48,459 nt of DNA from Chitinophagaceae bacterium (GCA_025933935.1 JAICYZ010000003.1:1-48459); one strand, 5' to 3'. Shown: positions 34,923-46,661, counted from the stretch's first letter. Made by a program: numbers and translations. Notes: generated from the letters alone by a model not told the origin.

Positions 34923-37346
34923 TTAAAACTTGTATTGGGCAGTGGCAACCAATTGTCGTGGGGAAATTGGATTGATGCTATAATTTTCGTGAACATAATA
35001 ATTATAAGTGTTTGTCAGATTGCTCATTTTTACCAGTAAAGAAATATTCTTAAAAGAATAACCTGCAGAAAGATCAATGGTAGTAAATCCCCTTACCGCA
35101 ATCAATCTTGAATAATTCTGTAGCTGTCCTTTCGTATTATTCCATCCAGCAAATCTATCTCCTGTATAAAACACAGAAGCCCCGATTTTCAACCCCTTCA
35201 GTTTTTGATCAAAAGAATAAAATGCAGTTGCGTTGGCAGTATGTGCCGGTGTTCCTACCAACCTTTCTCCTTCTACGTAGCTGCCTTTCGTATCAGGAGT
35301 TTTTGTGTACCGCATATTGTTGTAACTGTATCCCGCTATCAGGTTCAGCGCTTTCACAGGATGGCCTGAAATATCCAGTTCAATTCCGTCACTGGTAGTT
35401 TGCCCTGTCAGTTCCTGCAGGGAACTGTTGTTGTTGGGAGTAACGCCATCTGCCGCGAAAGGAGCAGTTTGAGCAAGATTATTATTGATGATGCGGTAAG
35501 TAGTGATATTGACAGAAAGTTGACCATTGATAAAATCATTTTTTATTCCCAATTCATATTGATCGATGATAGAAGGAGCAAGCGCGTTTCCAAAAACATC
35601 GGTCCCTTTGTTAACAGAAAATGAATTGGAATAACTGCCAAACAGCGCAGTATTCCGGAACATCTTATAAACAATTCCGAAGCGAGGAGAAAATGCTTTA
35701 TCAATTTTTGGATCGCCTTTTACGGTCGTGTCTTTTTTTAGATCAGTTGTTTGCACTGCTTCTGCTTTTTGAATTGACCACCTTACTCCTGCAAGCAACT
35801 TTATTTTATTGGAAATGCTGATCAGATCCTGAATATAAACACCTGCGCGGTTCACGGGGGTTTCGGTTTTTGAGATCTTTGAAGTAGCAGGAATATCCGT
35901 TCTGGCAATGAATTTGGAATGATCGAGAATATTGATGGTATCATATATTTTAGGATTGTCAAAAGCGAAATTAGTGCTGATATCCCGGTCCGCATCTATT
36001 CCTCCTAAAAGCGTGTGGCCAAGAATACCTGTTTTAAATTTCCCGGTCATGTTCATTTGTCCTGAAAGATATTGATCTTCCGACCGGATCCTGTTCAACG
36101 GCCTTGCCCAATCACCATTTGCAGCAGCCTGTATCCGTTCTGTTGAATAATAATCCCTGTTGTAAACATTGTAAGAAGCACTTGCATCGAGCGACCATGA
36201 ATCAGTGATCTTGTGTTTTAATTGAGCAGTAGTACTGCTTTGCTCAATCTTGTTATACTGCCAGTTCACTCCCTGAAAAGTATTTCGTGGAAGATGCGGA
36301 ATAATGGTATTGTCCAAAGAACCTGTACCAAAATCAGGCGTAAAATTGCTTTTTAAATAATCAGCCTGGATTAATAAGCTTGTTCTTTTATTGATGTTAT
36401 AAAGCAAAGAAGGATTGACATAGTATCTTTTGGAATGAACTTCATCCCTGTAACTGTTCTCGTCTTCCAAAGTGCCATTCACCCGGTAAGCAATTTTTTC
36501 AGATAAAGGACCATAAATATCAAACGCTGGTTTAACCAATCCAAAACTTCCCGCTCTTAAAGACGCATTTCCGCCAAAATCGAACTTTGGTTTTTTTGTC
36601 ACCATGTTAATAATCCCGCCCGGTGCGACACTTCCATATAAAATAGCAGCGCTGCCTTTCAGAATTTCTACCCGTTCCAACGAGCTCATTTCCGGCATTA
36701 CTGAAGCACTTACACGCGCACCATCTTTATAAATATTATCGTCTGACATCCTGTAGCCACGTGCAGCAAAAGTTTCCTGCACGCCACCACGGGTAGAAGA
36801 GAGGTAAACACCGTTGACATTTTTAATAACATCACTCAAGCGCTGGGATTGTTGATTGCTAATCGCATTCTGAGTGATGATAGAAATGCTTTGCGGTAGA
36901 TCCATTGACGCAATCGGAAGTTTTCCGATAGAAACCGGCTGCAGATTTTGGCTCCTTTTTCCATCTATGATTACTTCATCCAATTGCTTTGAGTTGCTGA
37001 TAATTGTAAATAAAATTTCTGCAGTGCGTTCATCTGATACATCAATTATTTTTTCTACCGGTTCAAATCCTGTGTAGGAAGCGATTACCGTATAAGTTCC
37101 CGGTTTAATGTTTTTTAAAATAAAATTTCCGCTTTCATCTGAGATTGTAGAAAGAGAAGTATTTTTTACAGAAATCGTAACCCAGCCAACTGGTTTCCCA
37201 TCAGACGAAATTACTTTTCCAATTATTTTTCCGTTATACTCATCATTTGCGAAGCAAACCGAAAAGTCAAGAAGAAAGAATGTTATAAATAAAAGAACTT
37301 TTGAGATTGTTTTAAAAGAAGAAAGAGGCATATTCAAAATTTTCAT
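34923..37346 (-). CDS. TonB-dependent siderophore-type receptor with N-terminal carboxypeptidase-regulatory-like domain
   Basis: GKVISSDGKPVGWVTISVKNTSLSTISDESGNF; plug region SLERVEILKGSAAILYGSVAPGGIINMVTKKP. Confidence 0.93.
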   Translation of the reverse strand: MKILNMPLSSFKTISKVLLFITFFLLDFSVCFANDEYNGKIIGKVISSDGKPVGWVTISVKNTSLSTISDESGNFILKNIKPGTYTVIASYTGFEPVEKIIDVSDERTAEILFTIISNSKQLDEVIIDGKRSQNLQPVSIGKLPIASMDLPQSISIITQNAISNQQSQRLSDVIKNVNGVYLSSTRGGVQETFAARGYRMSDDNIYKDGARVSASVMPEMSSLERVEILKGSAAILYGSVAPGGIINMVTKKPKFDFGGNASLRAGSFGLVKPAFDIYGPLSEKIAYRVNGTLEDENSYRDEVHSKRYYVNPSLLYNINKRTSLLIQADYLKSNFTPDFGTGSLDNTIIPHLPRNTFQGVNWQYNKIEQSSTTAQLKHKITDSWSLDASASYNVYNRDYYSTERIQAAANGDWARPLNRIRSEDQYLSGQMNMTGKFKTGILGHTLLGGIDADRDISTNFAFDNPKIYDTINILDHSKFIARTDIPATSKISKTETPVNRAGVYIQDLISISNKIKLLAGVRWSIQKAEAVQTTDLKKDTTVKGDPKIDKAFSPRFGIVYKMFRNTALFGSYSNSFSVNKGTDVFGNALAPSIIDQYELGIKNDFINGQLSVNITTYRIINNNLAQTAPFAADGVTPNNNSSLQELTGQTTSDGIELDISGHPVKALNLIAGYSYNNMRYTKTPDTKGSYVEGERLVGTPAHTANATAFYSFDQKLKGLKIGASVFYTGDRFAGWNNTKGQLQNYSRLIAVRGFTTIDLSAGYSFKNISLLVKMSNLTNTYNYYVHENYSINPISPRQLVATAQYKF

Positions 37347-37562: not shown

Positions 37563-39278
37563 CTAATCCAACTTCTCCATCTCCTCATTCACAAATTCCA
37601 TCAATGTTTTAATGTTTTCAGGAGAGAAATCAAATTTTAATCCGGCGGCTTTATACAGTTCGGGCAATGTTTTCGTACCGCCAAGACTTAATGCATTTAC
37701 ATAATTATCCAAAGCCTTTTCAGGGTCTTTTTTGTATTGCATCCAAAGGCCGATAGCGCCAAGTTGTGCAATGCCATATTCGATGTAATAAAACGGTACT
37801 TCATACAAATGCAATTGTTTCTGCCATCCGTTTTCAACATATTTTTCAAGGTGGGAGTAGTCAATTACATTATCCGAAAATTCATGAAATATTTCTACCC
37901 ATTTCTGTGACCTTTCTTCCAAAGAATGATTTGGATTTTCATAAATCCAGTGTTGAAATTTATCAATTACCGCAATCCATGGGAAGATGGTAATTACCCT
38001 TTCTAACTGATGCTCTTTGGCTCTTTTTAAATCTTCTTTATTTTGAAAGAAAACATCCCAATGATCCATTGAAAAAAGCTCCATCGCCATACTCGCCACT
38101 TCCGCGATTTCCATGGGATAATCTTTAAAGGAGCTTAATTCAAGCGAATGAGTTAAAAAAGATTGAATTGCATGGCCGCCTTCATGAACCATCGTAGTTA
38201 CATCGTGCATGGAACGGGCGGCATTCATGAAAATAAACGGCGCACCAGTTTCAGCAAGAGGCATGTTATAGCCGCCGGGAGCTTTTCCTTGCCTGCTTTC
38301 TACATCAAGGCGATTCATCGCATTCATCTGCCGAAGGCAATCTCCAAAAAACGGACGAAGTTTTGTAAAAACTTCAATTGATTTATTCAATAACTCAGCT
38401 CCTGTTTCAAACGGTGTTAACGGTTCTGTTCCTTCCGGCTCTGCTTCTACATCCCACGGGCGCAACACATCCAGCTTTAATTTTTCTTTTTTCTTTTGAT
38501 AAATTTTATTCACCAAAGGCACTACATGAAGCTTTACGGATTCATGAAAACGAAAAGTATCTTCTTTCGTATAATCAAAACGGCCAAGTTCTTTGAATTT
38601 ATAATCCCGGTAGTTTTCAAAACCTGCATTCAGTGCTTCCTGGTTTCTTCGGGTAATTAATTCTGTAAAAAGTTTATTCAATTCATCTTTATCCTGCAAT
38701 CTCCGCTCATTTACTTTTCGGTAAACTTCTTCACGCAATTTGCGGTCGTGACTTTCAAAAAATTTCGCAGCCTGTTGCAAAGTGTATGTTTTGCCTTCAA
38801 CTTCTATCGTCATCTTTCCCGTAATAACACCGTATTGTTGTTGCAGCATCGCAAGTTCTGCATGAATGGGAATATTTTCTTCGCGAAAAAGTTCAATACT
38901 TTTTCTGATAGAGCGCAAATAGGTAAAAAACTTTTCCTGGTCTAATTCTTTGGTAAAAGGAGATTCGACGAGTTTTTTATTTAACGCAAAAGCATAAGGT
39001 TGAATCTTTGGCTGGATTTCCATACAAAAGAAATTGAACGATTCTTCCAGCTTTTTATCGGTCGTATCACAGGTCATTTTTATCTGTCGCCAACAGGAAT
39101 CTTCGCTGATCACTGCTTCCAGTTCACTCATATCTTTCAGCCATTTCTCCATCGCTTCTTTTGAATCAATTTTTCTTTCCAAGAGATTTTTAAAATAAGG
39201 CTCAATCGTTTCCCAATCAGAAACGGTTAAATCTTCCGGAAGAAAATGCCTCGGTATTTTTTGTATGTCAGTGGTCAT
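37563..39278 (-). CDS. M3 family oligoendopeptidase
   Basis: HEGGHAIQSFLTHSLE zinc-binding motif. Confidence 0.93.
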   Translation of the reverse strand: MTTDIQKIPRHFLPEDLTVSDWETIEPYFKNLLERKIDSKEAMEKWLKDMSELEAVISEDSCWRQIKMTCDTTDKKLEESFNFFCMEIQPKIQPYAFALNKKLVESPFTKELDQEKFFTYLRSIRKSIELFREENIPIHAELAMLQQQYGVITGKMTIEVEGKTYTLQQAAKFFESHDRKLREEVYRKVNERRLQDKDELNKLFTELITRRNQEALNAGFENYRDYKFKELGRFDYTKEDTFRFHESVKLHVVPLVNKIYQKKKEKLKLDVLRPWDVEAEPEGTEPLTPFETGAELLNKSIEVFTKLRPFFGDCLRQMNAMNRLDVESRQGKAPGGYNMPLAETGAPFIFMNAARSMHDVTTMVHEGGHAIQSFLTHSLELSSFKDYPMEIAEVASMAMELFSMDHWDVFFQNKEDLKRAKEHQLERVITIFPWIAVIDKFQHWIYENPNHSLEERSQKWVEIFHEFSDNVIDYSHLEKYVENGWQKQLHLYEVPFYYIEYGIAQLGAIGLWMQYKKDPEKALDNYVNALSLGGTKTLPELYKAAGLKFDFSPENIKTLMEFVNEEMEKLD

Positions 39279-39341
39279 TGTGGACGGTTTTAAATTTCAG
39301 GAATTGGAAATTCAGATTTCAGAATCAGGAATCGGAGCTTG

Positions 39342-39358
39342 CAGTAAATAAAGAAATA
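39342..39358 (+). repeat. Dispersed motif copy CAGTAAATAAAGAAATA
   Basis: 3 mismatches to consensus; preceded by GAATTGGAAATTC... block. Confidence 0.45.
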
Positions 39359-39445
39359 ATTGAATTTTCTATTTCTTATTAATCGATTTATCCATAATTC
39401 TTAACTGATAAATTCCAGTATGCAACAATAAAATAATACAACAAT

Positions 39446-39961
39446 TTACTTAACTCCCCTGCTTTCAATCTTTCTTGGATTTGCTTGCTGTGGTTTTGCA
39501 TTTTTTACATTCGCATTATCTACCTGTACTGGCTTAGAATTTTTCAAATCAGCTGCTGCCTCTTTTTCCTCTTCAGTTCTCACTTTTATTTCAATATTGT
39601 TTTTCTCAATGATGTGCAACCATTTTACCATTTTTTTCATATCACTGCTATATACTCTTTCAAAGTCCAGATCAGGATATACTTTTTCAAAATACGCCTT
39701 CAAAATTTTCGCATCTGCATTTGCATCAGGAAGTTTTTCTTCACTTTTCTTCATCGCTTCAAATACTTCTGCCAGTGTGGTGTTATCTTTTATTGTATAC
39801 ACTTCTATGCTTTCAAGGTGCGAAAAATTGTGCTGCCGTGTACTCACAAATTTGGTGCTGTTATCTTCTAAAGAGCGAACCACAGCGCCGTCAGATTTTG
39901 ACGACAATAATTCAAACAAACCCGGTAACCCGGTAACTGAAACTAACTTATTATACTCCAT
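39446..39961 (-). CDS. DUF5606-like conserved Bacteroidota protein
   Basis: EYNKLVSVTGLPGLFELLSSKSDGAVVRSLED. Confidence 0.75.
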   Translation of the reverse strand: MEYNKLVSVTGLPGLFELLSSKSDGAVVRSLEDNSTKFVSTRQHNFSHLESIEVYTIKDNTTLAEVFEAMKKSEEKLPDANADAKILKAYFEKVYPDLDFERVYSSDMKKMVKWLHIIEKNNIEIKVRTEEEKEAAADLKNSKPVQVDNANVKNAKPQQANPRKIESRGVK

Positions 39962-40044
39962 AACGATCTTTTTGTTTTTGGGACTGCAAGATAATTGAAA
40001 TGGTTTTTGTTTGCGTTAACAAAAGATAAAAGTCATTTTTCATG

Positions 40045-40085
40045 GAATTCATGAATATTGAATATTAAGCATTGAATATTTATTC
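40045..40085. repeat. Short AT-rich repeat (gaatatt units)
   Basis: gaattcatgaatattgaatattaagcattgaatatttattc. Confidence 0.45.
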
Positions 40086-40112
40086 TTCACTTTTGTAAAC
40101 AGAGATCTGCGA

Positions 40113-40129
40113 TATTTCTTTATTTGCTG
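40113..40129 (-). repeat. Dispersed motif copy CAGCAAATAAAGAAATA
   Basis: Close to the 39342 copy; preceded on the minus strand by GGAATTGAGAATTGAGG. Confidence 0.4.
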
Positions 40130-40220
40130 ACGGGCTTTCTTTTAATCCTCAATTCTCAATTCCATCGATGGCGAAGGTTTTTACCAATAACATCGTCAAA
40201 TGTTTTAATTAATCAGTTTT

Positions 40221-43082
40221 ATGTATAAAATTCTTACCCTTCTTTTGGCAATTATCTCTTTGAATGCAACTGCACAGTCCGTTTCCGGAACGGTTGAAGA
40301 TGCAGCAACAGGAACACCGTTATCCAATGCGACTATTAAATTGTCTCCTGCAGATTCAACTGCCAATCCGTTGCTGACGGTGAGCGATTCAAAAGGAAAC
40401 TTTACATTTAAAAATGTGGCGGCCGCAAGTTATACTTTGTCTGTTACCTCGGTTGGTTATTCTAACTTTTCTAAAAAAATAGCCGTAATTAGCCAGGATA
40501 TCAATGTTGGGAATGTGAATATGTCCAAAAGCGCTGAAACTCTTGCTACTGTTGTGATTAAAGATAATTCAGCGGTAAAAGTTATTAACGATACGGTACA
40601 ATTTGCAGCCAGCCAGTATAAAGTAAACCCAGATGCGACGGCAGAAGATCTGATTAAAAAAATGCCTGGAATTACCGTAGATAAAACTGGTACTGTCACA
40701 GCACAGGGCGAAACTGTTCAAAAAGTAACAGTTGACGGCCGCGATTTTTTTGGCACCGATGCTACGGCTACGCTTCGCAATCTTCCTTCAGAAGTGATTG
40801 ATAAAATTCAGGTTTTTGATAAACTCAGCGACCAGGCACAACTTACCGGTTTTGACGATGGAAATACGACGAAAGCGATCAACATTGTAACAAAAAAAGA
40901 TATGCGAACAGGGCAGTTCGGGCGCATCTATGGCGGATATGGAACCGACGATCGTTACAGTGCGGGGGGGAATGTAAGTTTTTTCAATAACGCCCGAAGA
41001 ATTTCCTTAGTTGGATTATTCAATAATGTGAATCAGCAGAATTTTTCTTCGCAGGATTTACTTGGCGTTTCCGGAGCTGGTCGCCGTGGTGGTGGAGGGC
41101 AAAGAGGTGGCGGAGGTGGCAACTTTACAGTCGGTCAACAAAGTGGTATTGCAAAAACCGATGCCTTTGGAATCAATTACAGTGACGCGTGGGGAAAGAA
41201 AATTGATGTAACAGCCAGCTATTTTTTCAATAACAGCAATACTTCTAACAATCAAACCATTCAACAGCAAAATATTTTGAGGAAAGACAGCAGTTCTTAT
41301 TATGATGAAAATACACTTTCAGACGCGCATAACAATAATAACCGGGTTAATTTCAGGTTGAATTATAAAATAGATTCTGCCAATACACTTTTAATCGCTT
41401 CGAATCTGAATTTTCAAACAAACAATTCTACCAATTTTGTAAACGGAAACTTTTATTTAGATCCCGAGCGCCTCGATACTTCCAGCAAAACAGCAAATGA
41501 CCTGACCAGTGATAATCATGGCTACAGCATCAGTAATGAAGTTTTGTACCGGCATGCTTTTCCAAAAAGAGGCCGCAGTATTTCCCTCGGAATAAACACC
41601 AATTTTAATAATAAAAACGGCCAGAATTTTTTAAACGCTGTAAACGATTATTATAAACCTTTATCTACCGATACAACCAAACAAGTATCGAATCAAAAAA
41701 GCAACGTAAATCAGTATAGTTTTAATTTGGTTTACACAGAACCTATCGGACAAAAAACACAATTACAAGCGAATTACAATCCGGCTTTCCAGACAAGCCA
41801 GGCTGATCAGCGCACTTATTATTTTGACAACGTTGATTCAAAATATTCTTTGTTAGATACCAGTCTGAGCAATGTTTTTAATAACACTTATAATACACAA
41901 AATGCAGGAATTACGATTCGCAACGGTGATAGAAATAACATGTTGTCTGCCGGTGTTTCATACCAGTATAGTGAATTAAAAAGTGACCAGGTATTTCCCC
42001 AGGCAGGACATATTGATAATACTTACAGCAATTTTCTTGCGAATGCTTTTGCAAGATTTAAATTTTCTTCAAAAAGTAATTTAAGGGTTATCTATCGTGG
42101 ATCGGTATCGCCTCCATCTGTAAATCAATTGCAGAATGTTATTAATAACTCAAATCCACTTTTTTTATCCACCGGAAATCCTGATCTGCAACAACAATAT
42201 TCCAACAGGCTGATTTTGCGATATAATTATACAGACGCACCAAAAAGCAAAACCTTTTTTGCCAATGTTTTCCTTCAATCAACAAATGATTATGTGGCAA
42301 ATGCAACCTATACTGCTTCTAAAGATTCGGTGTTGTCAAATACCATCACGCTTCATAGAGGTTCTCAAATTTCAAAGCCTGTAAATTTAAATGGATATAT
42401 CAGTGCCAGGTCTTTCTTTACTTTCGGAATGCCATTGACATTTATGAAATCAAATTTGAACTGGAATGGTGGAATTAGTTATTCAAAACTTCCGGGTCTG
42501 TTGAATAATATTAAAAACGTTTCCAACAATTTCAATTACAATGTAGGTGCCGTTTTATCAAGCAATATCAGCGAATATGTTGATTTTAATTTGTCTTATT
42601 CTGCCAATATCAATACCGTGAAAAATACCATTCAACCTTCATTGAATAATAATTATTTCACTTCTTCGGCGGGAGTAAGTTTCAATTTGCTCACCAAAAA
42701 AGGATTGTTTTTTAACAATGATTTATCCAATGAAACTTATAAAGGATTATCAGCCGGATTGAATACGAACTTTTGGTTATGGAATATTGCAATCGGACAA
42801 AAATTTCTTAAGAACCAAAATGGCGAATTGAAACTTTCGGTTTTTGATTTATTAAAACAAAATAAAAGCATCACGCGTAATGTGACAGACTCTTACATAC
42901 AGGATGTGCAGAACCAGGTATTGCAACAATATTTTATGCTGACATTTACATACAAATTGAGGAACTTCGGAAAAGGAAAACCTCAAACCAATCAGGATGG
43001 TGAGAGAAATTTTCGCAGGTTTGGTGGCCCTGGCGGAATGCCATTTGGAGGAAATCGTGGCCCCGGCGGACCTTCACTTTAG
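40221..43082 (+). CDS. TonB-dependent receptor-like outer-membrane beta-barrel protein with carboxypeptidase-regulatory-like domain
   Basis: SVSGTVEDAATGTPLSNATIKL, plug-like VTVDGRDFFGTDATATLRNLPSEVIDKIQVFDK, Gly-rich insert and tail. Confidence 0.9.
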   Translation: MYKILTLLLAIISLNATAQSVSGTVEDAATGTPLSNATIKLSPADSTANPLLTVSDSKGNFTFKNVAAASYTLSVTSVGYSNFSKKIAVISQDINVGNVNMSKSAETLATVVIKDNSAVKVINDTVQFAASQYKVNPDATAEDLIKKMPGITVDKTGTVTAQGETVQKVTVDGRDFFGTDATATLRNLPSEVIDKIQVFDKLSDQAQLTGFDDGNTTKAINIVTKKDMRTGQFGRIYGGYGTDDRYSAGGNVSFFNNARRISLVGLFNNVNQQNFSSQDLLGVSGAGRRGGGGQRGGGGGNFTVGQQSGIAKTDAFGINYSDAWGKKIDVTASYFFNNSNTSNNQTIQQQNILRKDSSSYYDENTLSDAHNNNNRVNFRLNYKIDSANTLLIASNLNFQTNNSTNFVNGNFYLDPERLDTSSKTANDLTSDNHGYSISNEVLYRHAFPKRGRSISLGINTNFNNKNGQNFLNAVNDYYKPLSTDTTKQVSNQKSNVNQYSFNLVYTEPIGQKTQLQANYNPAFQTSQADQRTYYFDNVDSKYSLLDTSLSNVFNNTYNTQNAGITIRNGDRNNMLSAGVSYQYSELKSDQVFPQAGHIDNTYSNFLANAFARFKFSSKSNLRVIYRGSVSPPSVNQLQNVINNSNPLFLSTGNPDLQQQYSNRLILRYNYTDAPKSKTFFANVFLQSTNDYVANATYTASKDSVLSNTITLHRGSQISKPVNLNGYISARSFFTFGMPLTFMKSNLNWNGGISYSKLPGLLNNIKNVSNNFNYNVGAVLSSNISEYVDFNLSYSANINTVKNTIQPSLNNNYFTSSAGVSFNLLTKKGLFFNNDLSNETYKGLSAGLNTNFWLWNIAIGQKFLKNQNGELKLSVFDLLKQNKSITRNVTDSYIQDVQNQVLQQYFMLTFTYKLRNFGKGKPQTNQDGERNFRRFGGPGGMPFGGNRGPGGPSL

Positions 43083-43099
43083 TATATAAATATGTTGCT

Positions 43100-43672
43100 T
43101 TGAATGAAAGGGAATTGATTGCCCTGCTGAAAAAAAAAGACAGGGAAGCTTTTAAGATAGTGGTAGAAACCTGGCAAGGTATGGTTTACAATACTGCGTT
43201 GGGTCTATTACAAAGTATGGAAGATGCTGAAGATACAGCTCAGGAAGTGTTTATGCAGGTGTATGAATCAATTTCATCTTTTAAGGAAGAATCAAAGTTT
43301 TCTACATGGCTTTACAGGATCACGGTTTCAAAAGCGCTGGATCACCTGAGAAAGAAAAAAAGAAAAAAAAGATTTGCGTTTATCCAAAGTTTGTATGGGA
43401 AAAATGATGGGCAAATGATTGAACCGCCGGATTTTTTTCATCCCGGGATTAAGATGGAAAATAAGGAAAACGCAGCAATTCTTTTCAAAGCTGTGGATCA
43501 ATTGCCTGTAAATCAAAAGACCGCTTTTATTCTTAACAAAACTGAAAATCTAACTTATCGCGAAATTGCTGAAATAATGGAATCTAGTGAATCTGCTGTG
43601 GATGCCTTGCTGCAGAGAGCGAAAAAAAATTTGCAAAAAATTTTAAAAGAATATTATCAAAAGTTGGATTAA
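43100..43672 (+). CDS. ECF RNA polymerase sigma factor, TTG start
   Basis: AEDTAQEVFMQVYESISSF, FSTWLYRITVSKALDHLRKKKRK, LTYREIAEIMESSESAVDALLQRAKKNLQK. Confidence 0.95.
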   Translation: MNERELIALLKKKDREAFKIVVETWQGMVYNTALGLLQSMEDAEDTAQEVFMQVYESISSFKEESKFSTWLYRITVSKALDHLRKKKRKKRFAFIQSLYGKNDGQMIEPPDFFHPGIKMENKENAAILFKAVDQLPVNQKTAFILNKTENLTYREIAEIMESSESAVDALLQRAKKNLQKILKEYYQKLD

Positions 43673-43804
43673 TAATAAGAAAAATGATGAAGGTTTTTTG
43701 ATAAAACGACGTCTAAAAAAGGTAATTAACAAAGAAAGAAAAGGTTTCGGGAAAGTAAAATTTAAAATGCAATAGATTATTTTTTAAAAAAAAAATTTTA
43801 AGTC

Positions 43805-44146
43805 ATGGAAAAAAAATTCAATGATAAAATTGATAAAACAATGAGCAGCTTTGATGACATTGAAAAAGCATCGCCAAGACCTTTTTTCTTCACACGCCTG
43901 GAGGCGAGGATGGAAAATCAAAAAAGTATCTGGGAAGTAATTTCTTCTTTTGTGACGAAACCAATGGTTGCATTTGCATGCATATGCCTGGTGGTTATCA
44001 TTAATGCGGCGGTAATTTTTTCTTCATCCGCTTCATCCGCTTCAACAACAAATTCTTTTTCTCAACAAAATAATGAACTCGCCACAGCCGATGAATATAA
44101 CCTGGTGAGTTCTAATTTTTATGAATATGTAAATACAAAACCATAA
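43805..44146 (+). CDS. Short single-TM protein, candidate anti-sigma factor
   Basis: About 60-aa N-terminal region, single TM VAFACICLVVIINAAVIF, immediately after the ECF sigma gene. Confidence 0.65.
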   Translation: MEKKFNDKIDKTMSSFDDIEKASPRPFFFTRLEARMENQKSIWEVISSFVTKPMVAFACICLVVIINAAVIFSSSASSASTTNSFSQQNNELATADEYNLVSSNFYEYVNTKP

Positions 44147-44643
44147 TGAACGCAACTGCAAAAACTAAATCTCTTGTCACGATTATCATTTTCCTTCTGA
44201 TAACCAATATTGCGATGCTGGTATTTTTTATTTTGCTGGGCAAACCTGCTGAAAGAAAACCGAGAAACCACGAAACAAATGGCATGTACACTTCTCTTCA
44301 AAATGAAGTTGGTTTTTCGAAAGACCAATTGGATAAATACCAGCTTTTGAGAAAGGAACAAATGGAAAAAGTAAAGCCTTTATTTAATGATGTAAGAAAT
44401 GCAAAGAAAGACTTTTATGGGTTGATTTATTCTTCAAACATGCCGGATTCATTGATAAAAGCTGACGCTGATTCCATTGCACAAAAACAAAGAACATTAG
44501 ACATGCAAATGTTCAGTTATTTTAAAAATATCCGAAATATTTGCACGCCCGAACAAACGCGGAAGTTCGATTCCGTGATAAAAAAAGTAGTTGTAAGAAT
44601 GGTCGGCCGCCCTGGGAAAGATAACCGGGAAAACAAGAAATAA
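44146..44643 (+). CDS. Membrane-anchored Spy/CpxP/CnrX-like periplasmic sensor-type protein
   Basis: N-terminal TM anchor; Spy/LTXXQ-like helices, NICTPEQTRKFDSVI; TAATG overlap with upstream gene. Confidence 0.7.
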   Translation: MNATAKTKSLVTIIIFLLITNIAMLVFFILLGKPAERKPRNHETNGMYTSLQNEVGFSKDQLDKYQLLRKEQMEKVKPLFNDVRNAKKDFYGLIYSSNMPDSLIKADADSIAQKQRTLDMQMFSYFKNIRNICTPEQTRKFDSVIKKVVVRMVGRPGKDNRENKK

Positions 44644-44692
44644 TTTTAAATCTTTCATTTAATACTTTAAAAAAAACAAAAATTAAAAATTC

Positions 44693-45070
44693 ATGAAAAG
44701 AAAAATCACGATGTTGTTTGCGTTAATTTTAATCGCAACAACCGGCATTTATGCCCAGGGAATGCAACGCCGCACGGTACCTGAAAGAGTAAAAGCAACA
44801 ATGGACAAAATTACTACGCCATTAAACCTTGATGCTTCGCAGGCAAGCCGCACCGATAGTGTTTTTACCGATTATTACACCGCACAAATGAAAATGTTCC
44901 AGGATGCACAGGCTTCCGGTAACCGACCTGACAGAGCCGCTTTTCAAAAGTTGATGCAGGACCGGGATGCGAAATTGCAAACCATTTTTACTGCAGATCA
45001 GTACACTAAATTTAAGAATGAAGTGGAACAAACCCTTAGGCCACAACGCCAGTCTCAGGGAAATCAATAA
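44693..45070 (+). CDS. Secreted Spy/CpxP-like protein
   Basis: Signal peptide ending YAQG; helical LNLDASQASRTDSVF ... IFTADQYTKFKNEVEQ. Confidence 0.65.
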   Translation: MKRKITMLFALILIATTGIYAQGMQRRTVPERVKATMDKITTPLNLDASQASRTDSVFTDYYTAQMKMFQDAQASGNRPDRAAFQKLMQDRDAKLQTIFTADQYTKFKNEVEQTLRPQRQSQGNQ

Positions 45071-45083
45071 GGAAATTGTTGTT

Positions 45084-45118
45084 CAAAAAAGGTTGCTGCA
45101 AGGCAGCCTTTTTTTTTA
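45084..45118 (+). terminator. Rho-independent terminator after Spy-like gene
   Basis: GCTGC-AAG-GCAGC stem followed by T9 run. Confidence 0.75.
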
Positions 45119-45122
45119 ATGA

Positions 45123-45725
45123 CTAAAAGCTTATGCGGTTGTGCTTCTCTTTCGCGTGAAAATCGTGCAGTAGTTTTTCAAAATTTTCAGGATGTATCGC
45201 TTTTGTCGCATTGGGAATAATGGTTGATTCAAAACCAAGTTCCATCCCGTCAAGAGCGGTAAAATACACACAATAATCGGCTGCCAATCCACAAACCGAG
45301 ATTTCCGTTACACCTCTTCCTTTCAGATAGTCGCCCATACCCGTAGCTTTCTTTTTGCCATTATCGAAAAAACCGCTGTAGCTGTCTATATTTTTATCCA
45401 TTCCTTTTCTAAAGATCGCTTCAATTTTTTTTGTATGCAAAAGTGAAGAAAATTGAGCGCCATAACTTTCCTGCACACAATGGTCTGGCCATAAAACCTG
45501 TGGAAGTCCCTCCAAATTTATTTCATCAAACACTTTTTTTCCGGCGTGTGCAGAAGCAAAACTTTTATGATCTGCAGGATGCCAATCTTGTGTAGCCACC
45601 ACGAGATCAAAATCATTTTGCAAAGCATTGATCGCCGGAATGATCGTATCACCTTCATTTACAGCAAGTGCACCACCTGGTAAAAAATCATTTTGAACAT
45701 CCACTACAATCAATGCATTCATCAT
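45123..45725 (-). CDS. pncA: Nicotinamidase
   Basis: ALIVVDVQNDFLPGGALAV, ATQDWHPADH, WPDHCVQ, GLAADYCVYFTALD. Confidence 0.95.
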   Translation of the reverse strand: MMNALIVVDVQNDFLPGGALAVNEGDTIIPAINALQNDFDLVVATQDWHPADHKSFASAHAGKKVFDEINLEGLPQVLWPDHCVQESYGAQFSSLLHTKKIEAIFRKGMDKNIDSYSGFFDNGKKKATGMGDYLKGRGVTEISVCGLAADYCVYFTALDGMELGFESTIIPNATKAIHPENFEKLLHDFHAKEKHNRISF

Positions 45726-45811
45726 CTTATTTTTTGGTTTTTACAAAAATGAAGTTTGCAATTTTTAGAAAGGCATTCTTTATTTTAAAAAATAAAAACG
45801 CCAATCAATGA

Positions 45812-45828
45812 TATTTGTTCGTTTATTG
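45812..45828 (-). repeat. Dispersed motif copy CAATAAACGAACAAATA
   Basis: 1 mismatch to consensus; intergenic. Confidence 0.55.
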
Positions 45829-45890
45829 AAACCAATTATATCAATGAAAATAGTTTTTCATTTTTATCAAACATGAACTAAAACTTTTTG

Positions 45891-46661
45891 TTACTCTGCT
45901 GTCCAATCTTTTCCATAATGATCGTACAAATTCTTTTCATAAACATTGTCATTCATTTGTGATTCATCATACGCGGGGCTATTTTGTACCGCATCGGTGG
46001 AAATATTTACAATCACAACTGAATTATCCCATTTTACTCCGGTAATCCATTTAGTGGATAATAACACTTTATCCCTGTCAAGCCAGGTTCCGGTATCTAC
46101 CACGAGAAAGCTAATTTTCCAGTTTTTGTCGTCTACAATAAAATCATCCACTTTTCCAATTTGCCCATCAGTTGTGTGAATGGCATAACCTTTCACTTCA
46201 TCGGCGCTTCTTAAATGGGGATCACTGTGTTCGTCAGTCATATTATTGGCTGGACTTTGGGCGGCCACATTTTCACTTTCATAAAGTTCGCTTGGCATCA
46301 TCCCAAAGATTCCTGCACCATGTTCATCGGGGTCGCCTCCCCAATATCCTTCCCAGGGATAGTAGGATGCCAGTTGTTCTTCCTGCTGTCGTGAAACAGG
46401 CTTATCCGTATCAATATCAGGGCTGTTTTCAATTTGCTTTTTTGTAAGATTAACAGGGAATTCTTTATTTTCCCAGTCTGGCTGTTGCAGTACTGAAGGA
46501 GAAATGAGTACTTTTCGTCCTGAAAGCCATCCGCCCGTTCTTACGATTAAATAACGAACGGTCCAACTTTGATCATCGAAATAAAAATCTTCAACTTTAC
46601 CAATTTCGCCATCGGTTTCCTTTAGCGTAAATCCTTCCAAATCTTTAAGGCTGCGTTTCAT
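45891..46661 (-). CDS. Protein with two PRC-barrel domains
   Basis: Two repeats: DGEIGKVEDFYFDDQSWTVRYLIVRTGGWLSGRKVLIS and DGQIGKVDDFIVDDKNWKISFLVVDTGTWLDRDKVLLS. Confidence 0.9.
   Translation of the reverse strand: MKRSLKDLEGFTLKETDGEIGKVEDFYFDDQSWTVRYLIVRTGGWLSGRKVLISPSVLQQPDWENKEFPVNLTKKQIENSPDIDTDKPVSRQQEEQLASYYPWEGYWGGDPDEHGAGIFGMMPSELYESENVAAQSPANNMTDEHSDPHLRSADEVKGYAIHTTDGQIGKVDDFIVDDKNWKISFLVVDTGTWLDRDKVLLSTKWITGVKWDNSVVIVNISTDAVQNSPAYDESQMNDNVYEKNLYDHYGKDWTAE

What the first reader, a model, noticed from the sequence alone, without database searches (positions are those of the whole stretch)
40221..45070. Receptor-ECF sigma-TM protein-CnrX/Spy-like-Spy-like envelope module
Five same-strand genes, several closely spaced: OM receptor-like barrel, ECF sigma factor (17 bp later), a 113-aa single-TM protein, a 165-aa TM-anchored Spy/CpxP-like protein (TAATG overlap), and a secreted 125-aa Spy-like protein, ending at a terminator. 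ECF sigma + short TM anti-sigma + membrane-anchored Spy-fold sensor mirrors the CnrH/CnrY/CnrX metal-sensing architecture, here joined to an outer-membrane barrel instead of an efflux pump. The anti-sigma and sensor roles are inferred.
Basis: partly seen in the sequence, partly recalled or inferred. Interest (0 to 1): 0.6.

Follow-up and report, generated by a model that had tools for sequence, protein, structure and literature searches.

The report
Envelope-stress sigma switch with Spy-fold sensor
This is a bacterial alarm switch in which a Spy-shaped membrane sensor and a small membrane protein appear to hold a gene-activating sigma factor in check; it is conserved across a whole bacterial phylum and, in this lineage, seems to switch on a toxin-exporting pump, although the signal it senses is unknown.

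Summary
The five genes are as described and their order is conserved in most same-genus genomes. The core (ECF sigma, small single-TM protein, TM-anchored Spy-fold protein) is far wider: 77 of 80 sigma-selected loci in Bacteroidota, Chlorobiota and Ignavibacteria carry the anchored Spy protein. The anti-sigma role gained strong indirect support: in Bacteroidales loci the same slot holds a zf-HC2 zinc-finger protein. The sensor's predicted fold is closest to CnrX, but none of the five CnrX metal ligands is present in the window protein, and the sigma is nearer AlgU/SigW/RpoE than CnrH. So it probably works like CnrYXH but is not a CnrYXH member.

New here: a promoter, AAGGTTTT-N12-CGTC, lies before the barrel-sigma unit and before the anti-sigma-Spy unit. 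In the genome only four such sites are promoter-placed. Anti-sigma and sensor each carry a near-invariant Asn in their membrane helix, predicting contact. The signal is unresolved: envelope or amphiphile stress is favoured; copper is the main rival, because flavobacterial relatives carry SCO1, YHYH, MbnP and MauG genes next door.

The parts
40174..40197 (+). predicted ECF promoter of the barrel-sigma unit, AAGGTTTT-N12-CGTC
   Evidence: exact match; same dyad in 13 of 34 barrel upstream regions against at most 5 in shuffles; one of four promoter-placed sites in the genome
40221..43082 (+). outer-membrane beta-barrel protein (PF14905) with CarboxypepD_reg domain; probable regulon member or cargo, not core
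   Evidence: Pfam; neighbour in the genus and other Chitinophagaceae-type loci, 18 of 80 sigma-selected loci
43100..43672 (+). ECF sigma factor, AlgU/SigW/RpoE-like
   Evidence: Pfam/NCBIfam; PDB profile search
43690..43713 (+). predicted ECF promoter of the anti-sigma-Spy unit, AAGGTTTT-N12-CGTC(TAA)
   Evidence: conserved in the same place in genus and phylum-wide loci; CGTC in the last 45 nt of 26 of 52 gaps against 1.7 expected
43805..44146 (+). single-TM anti-sigma factor, about 53-residue cytosolic tail, near-invariant Asn67 in the TM helix, periplasmic E97-Y98 and Y106
   Evidence: orthologous slot has zf-HC2 in Bacteroidales; conservation
44146..44643 (+). TM-anchored Spy/CnrX-fold sensor subunit, near-invariant Asn21 in the TM helix, Cys133 and Gln137 (CTPEQ motif)
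   Evidence: AF2 mean pLDDT 89.7; Foldseek top hit CnrX; PDB profile search; conservation
44693..45070 (+). secreted four-helix protein with two LTXXQ-like motifs, remote Spy relative
   Evidence: hhalign 93 percent against the sensor family, E 3e-7; AF2 pLDDT 85.4 but no PDB fold match
45095..45107 (.). intrinsic terminator hairpin, found on both strands

Best explanation
A three-component transmembrane ECF switch. The 113-aa protein is an anti-sigma factor (CnrY-like in size and layout) whose cytosolic tail holds the sigma factor. The 165-aa Spy/CnrX-fold protein sits beside it in the inner membrane (TM helices predicted to touch through Asn67 and Asn21) and reads the periplasm, probably through the anti-sigma's short conserved periplasmic tail. 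When the sensor is occupied or altered by a signal, the anti-sigma lets go. Free sigma then fires from AAGGTTTT-N12-CGTC promoters: its own barrel-sigma operon (positive feedback), the anti-sigma-sensor-secreted-Spy operon (negative feedback plus a periplasmic protein), a multidrug-type RND pump operon and a second barrel. The output resembles the Bae/Cpx response (Spy plus RND pump), so the likeliest signal here is envelope damage or amphiphilic toxicants. Shown by computation: co-conservation, fold, anti-sigma domain in orthologues, promoters and their few targets. Inferred: binding, release mechanism, direction of regulation, signal.
For: Triad conserved phylum-wide. zf-HC2 above cut-off in 8 of 10 Bacteroidales-type TM-slot proteins, one more just below. 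Sensor fold: CnrX, CpxP, Spy, VirG-like, ZraP and NccX fill the top 39 Foldseek hits; profile E 4e-9 Spy, 1.6e-6 NccX, 2e-6 CnrX. Conserved promoter before the anti-sigma gene and the barrel. Genome scan: the sites with 0-1 mismatches that are intergenic and within 100 nt of a gene start are only the two window sites, the RND operon and a barrel paralogue; nearly all other sites lie inside genes. RND site kept in the 7 closest genomes, 11-12 of 12 positions, about 32-62 nt before the called start, none of 200 shuffles as good in any of them. The RND permease is of the multidrug type, not CzcA type. In six genomes of other genera the only sites that look like promoters are anti-sigma promoters. 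Asn67 110/124, Asn21 106/107, background 0.3-0.5 percent.
Against: No complex was modelled and no coevolution test done. The window anti-sigma itself matches no anti-sigma family. The motif has not been tied to this sigma by experiment; the genome has about 20 other sigma-region-2 matches. The RND link is seen in the window's clade only; more distant genus members lack the motif before their best adaptor match. The signal is not known.
Confidence: 0.72

Rival explanations
1. The module is a metal switch, probably for copper: the sensor binds a metal ion (His72, His125 and/or Cys133) as CnrX binds nickel or cobalt, and the regulon handles the metal.
For: Flavobacterial and related loci carry YHYH, SCO1/SenC, MORN, EF-hand, MbnP and MauG genes directly downstream. 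His72 and His125 (the latter aligned to CnrX H119) are common in the family, and the sensor has a lone conserved Cys133.
Against: In the window protein positions 72 and 125 are Gln and Tyr, all five CnrX ligand positions are non-ligands, and only 3 of 18 genus members keep both His. The predicted pump target is of the multidrug, not the heavy-metal, RND type. Position 133 is two helix turns from 125, so a shared site is not obvious.
Confidence: 0.22
2. Cell-surface signalling of the FecA/FecR/FecI kind: the barrel is a TonB-linked receptor that signals to the anti-sigma; the Spy protein is only cargo.
For: Barrel gene 17 bp upstream of sigma, with a long N-terminal part before the barrel domain.
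Against: No STN or FecR domain found; barrel absent from most loci (present in 18 of 80) and placed after the triad in L053, whereas the anchored Spy protein is nearly always present.
Confidence: 0.05
3. Independent genes that happen to be neighbours.
For: A second promoter splits the cluster.
Against: Phylum-wide co-conservation of three genes and a shared promoter motif.
Confidence: 0.01

Closest known systems
CnrYXH (and NccYXH) of Cupriavidus
   Same: ECF sigma, short single-TM anti-sigma, TM-anchored CnrX/Spy-fold sensor; predicted RND pump target
   Different: sigma lineage nearer AlgU/SigW/RpoE; CnrX metal ligands absent in the window; pump of multidrug type and unlinked; extra barrel and secreted Spy-like protein; sigma gene comes first
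Bae and Cpx envelope responses (Spy, CpxP, MdtABC)
   Same: Spy-fold periplasmic protein and multidrug RND pump as output
   Different: ECF sigma and anti-sigma instead of histidine kinase and response regulator; a Spy fold is tethered beside the regulator
RpoE/SigW-type sigma factors with zf-HC2 anti-sigma factors
   Same: sigma lineage; zinc-finger anti-sigma in Bacteroidales orthologues
   Different: window anti-sigma has no zinc finger; partner is a Spy-fold protein
FecIRA-type cell-surface signalling
   Same: outer-membrane barrel next to an ECF sigma and anti-sigma
   Different: no STN or FecR domain; barrel optional

Membership tests
CnrYXH-type metal signalling system | ECF sigma + short TM protein in the anti-sigma slot + TM-anchored sensor of CnrX fold | tested here: met
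CnrYXH-type metal signalling system | CnrX ligands H42, H46, E63, H119, M123 in the sensor | tested here: not met
   aligned positions Y48, Q52, R69, Y125, I129
CnrYXH-type metal signalling system | sigma closest to CnrH | tested here: not met
   AlgU (Pseudomonas sigma-H) 1e-33, SigW 2.5e-32, RpoE 5e-30, CnrH 6e-12
CnrYXH-type metal signalling system | response to Ni/Co | not testable with these tools
   needs expression data
Spy/CpxP/CnrX fold superfamily (165-aa protein) | fold and sequence profile | tested here: met
Spy/CpxP family (125-aa protein) | fold match to a solved Spy-family structure | tested here: not met
   no Foldseek match; hhalign 93 percent to the sensor family
anti-sigma factor (113-aa protein) | recognised anti-sigma domain in the window protein | tested here: not met
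   no Pfam/NCBIfam/PDB hit
anti-sigma factor (113-aa protein) | recognised anti-sigma domain in orthologues at the same locus position | tested here: met
   PF13490 zf-HC2 in 8 of 10 above cut-off
anti-sigma factor (113-aa protein) | binds the sigma factor | not testable with these tools
FecIRA cell-surface signalling | STN domain in the receptor and FecR domain in the anti-sigma | tested here: not met

The most novel reading that the evidence does not exclude
A phylum-wide, undescribed family of envelope-stress switches in which a membrane-tethered Spy-fold protein is itself the sensor of an ECF sigma/anti-sigma pair, coupled through matching Asn residues in the membrane, and has been rewired between lineages: copper-type outputs in flavobacteria, barrel plus multidrug RND pump in Chitinophagaceae.
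Probability: 0.4. Interest if true: 0.75.

Novelty: new variant of a known kind. Interest (0 to 1): 0.55.

Why it matters
A coevolution survey (PMC7406223) found class I anti-sigma domains next to only 6 percent of Bacteroidetes ECF sigmas and suggested that other anti-sigma classes may be dominant. This module offers one such class, with a predicted promoter, a short testable regulon and a sensor fold with solved relatives, and it may be a Bacteroidota counterpart of the Bae/Cpx response linking envelope stress to RND efflux.

Tried and rejected
PDB profile search with the anti-sigma family: no meaningful hit. Foldseek of the 125-aa protein: no Spy match. Barrel profile against PDB: only weak scaffoldin hits to the N-terminal domain. 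Rfam over 39000-46000: nothing. Promoter dyads other than AGGTT-14-CGTC before the barrel were not followed; some look like conserved coding sequence of the divergent neighbour. Barrel paralogue L208: no orthologue seen in the genus; the closest matches there are mostly the module barrel. Generalising the RND link to other genera: not supported by exact motif search. Sigma/anti-sigma coevolution: 124 pairs assembled but not analysed, judged too few and too related. The main ECF classification paper was not held; literature searches found no description of this module in the open library, which does not cover most subscription journals.

Full report
Observation. The five + strand genes are present as described. 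The 17-bp barrel-sigma gap, the TAATG overlap and the final terminator are real. The host is a Chitinophagaceae-like bacterium: named relatives of the locus include Niastella, Chitinophaga and Ferruginibacter, and a same-genus contig is recorded only as 'Bacteroidetes bacterium'.

Conservation. Searching relatives with the 165-aa protein gave matches in 30 of 61 genomes; a sigma gene lay beside the match in all 30 loci and the small TM protein was recognised in most. In the genus the order barrel-sigma-TM-Spy1 is nearly constant and the fifth gene usually follows; in L053 the barrel stands after the triad instead. Selecting by sigma alone, 77 of 80 named loci had the anchored Spy protein directly downstream and 72 the small TM protein as well, reaching Chlorobiaceae and Ignavibacteriales records. 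In a class-wide sample 30 of 30 top loci had sigma + Spy1 and 27 had all three. The barrel and the 125-aa protein are Chitinophagaceae-type additions (18 of 80 loci each). Several Bacteroidales-type loci have a second Spy/LTXXQ protein of their own, so an additional Spy-like partner recurs.

The anti-sigma slot. The window protein matches no family. In Bacteroidales-type loci the protein in the same position carries an N-terminal zf-HC2 domain, above cut-off in 8 of 10 tested and just below in one more, followed by a segment that aligns with the window protein, including the PFF-x-TR-like motif and the TM helix. This is the best evidence that the slot is an anti-sigma factor; it is indirect for the window protein.

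The sensor. The family profile matches Spy (4e-9), NccX (1.6e-6), CnrX (2e-6), CpxP and ZraP. The AlphaFold2 model (mean pLDDT 89.7) has CnrX, CpxP, Spy, VirG-like, ZraP and NccX as its top 39 PDB matches, CnrX first, TM-score up to 0.78 by target length for CnrX; Foldseek E-values are modest (about 0.02), as may be expected for a short helical fold. Using the NccX alignment, and the CnrX ligand numbering from my own knowledge, the five ligand positions correspond to Y48, Q52, R69, Y125 and I129 in the window protein, so a CnrX-type site is absent. Across the family position 125 (the H119 equivalent) is His in 72 of 107 and position 72 is His in 64; in the genus only 3 of 18 have both, while all 18 keep the single periplasmic Cys133.

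Membrane pairing. The most conserved residue inside the anti-sigma TM helix is Asn67 (110 of 124), and the sensor TM helix has Asn21 (106 of 107), against 0.3-0.5 percent Asn elsewhere in those helices, at median offsets 14 and 12 of the 19-residue hydrophobic segment. I infer a helix-helix contact. The anti-sigma periplasmic tail keeps E97-Y98 and Y106, a possible ligand for the Spy cradle.

Promoters and regulon. A dyad count upstream of the barrel gene gave AGGTT-14-CGTC in 13 of 34 loci, at most 5 in shuffles. The same element lies in the sigma-TM gap of the window and of most genus members, and variants of it phylum-wide; CGTC occurs in the last 45 nt of 26 of 52 gaps against 1.7 expected. 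In the window's genome the extended form CGAAGGTTTT-N12-CGTC occurs exactly three times, each just upstream of a gene, and one mismatch adds the anti-sigma site and one coding site. The targets are the barrel-sigma unit, the anti-sigma-Spy unit, a barrel paralogue (C221) and an adaptor-RND-TolC operon (C262). The pump is closest to multidrug RND permeases (NF033617, TIGR00915), far above CusA/CzcA, although below the curated cut-offs. Upstream of the adaptor gene the motif is kept in the seven closest genomes with 11-12 of 12 positions; more distant ones lack it or keep only a CGTC-like -10. In six genomes of other genera the only exact sites that look like promoters are anti-sigma promoters. 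The genome is about 88 percent complete, so targets may be missing.

The signal. In the window clade the output (Spy-like protein, barrels, multidrug pump) points to envelope or amphiphile stress. In flavobacterial and related loci the genes next door are YHYH, SCO1/SenC, MORN, EF-hand, MbnP and MauG, which points to copper. Both may be true of different lineages. The lone Cys133 could also make the sensor thiol-responsive. None of this is tested.

Verdict. Architecture confirmed and broadened; mechanism like CnrYXH; membership in CnrYXH rejected on metal ligands and sigma lineage; the predicted promoter and regulon are new. A new variant of a known kind.

Noticed in passing
L208:1173-4010 (-), genome C221:3672-6509: Second PF14905 barrel (946 aa, about 35 percent identical to the module barrel) with an exact copy of the promoter 32 nt upstream; no clear orthologue in the genus.
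   Followed up: partly
L103, L105, L108, L109, L116, L120, L121 downstream of the triad: Recurrent YHYH-MORN-SCO1 gene string, often with an EF-hand protein, after the sigma triad in flavobacterial and related genomes.
   Followed up: partly
L063, L092, L101, L107 downstream of the triad: MbnP and di-haem MauG-type genes (copper-related in methanobactin systems) after the triad.
   Followed up: partly
G007 (same genus): Genome 98 percent complete with PF14905 barrels but no match to the anchored Spy protein.
   Followed up: no
window 34923-37346 (-): TonB-dependent receptor with plug and CarboxypepD_reg on the opposite strand upstream of the module.
   Followed up: no
window 45123-45725 (-): Isochorismatase-family gene convergent with the module across the shared terminator; neighbour conserved in the closest genome only.
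   Followed up: no
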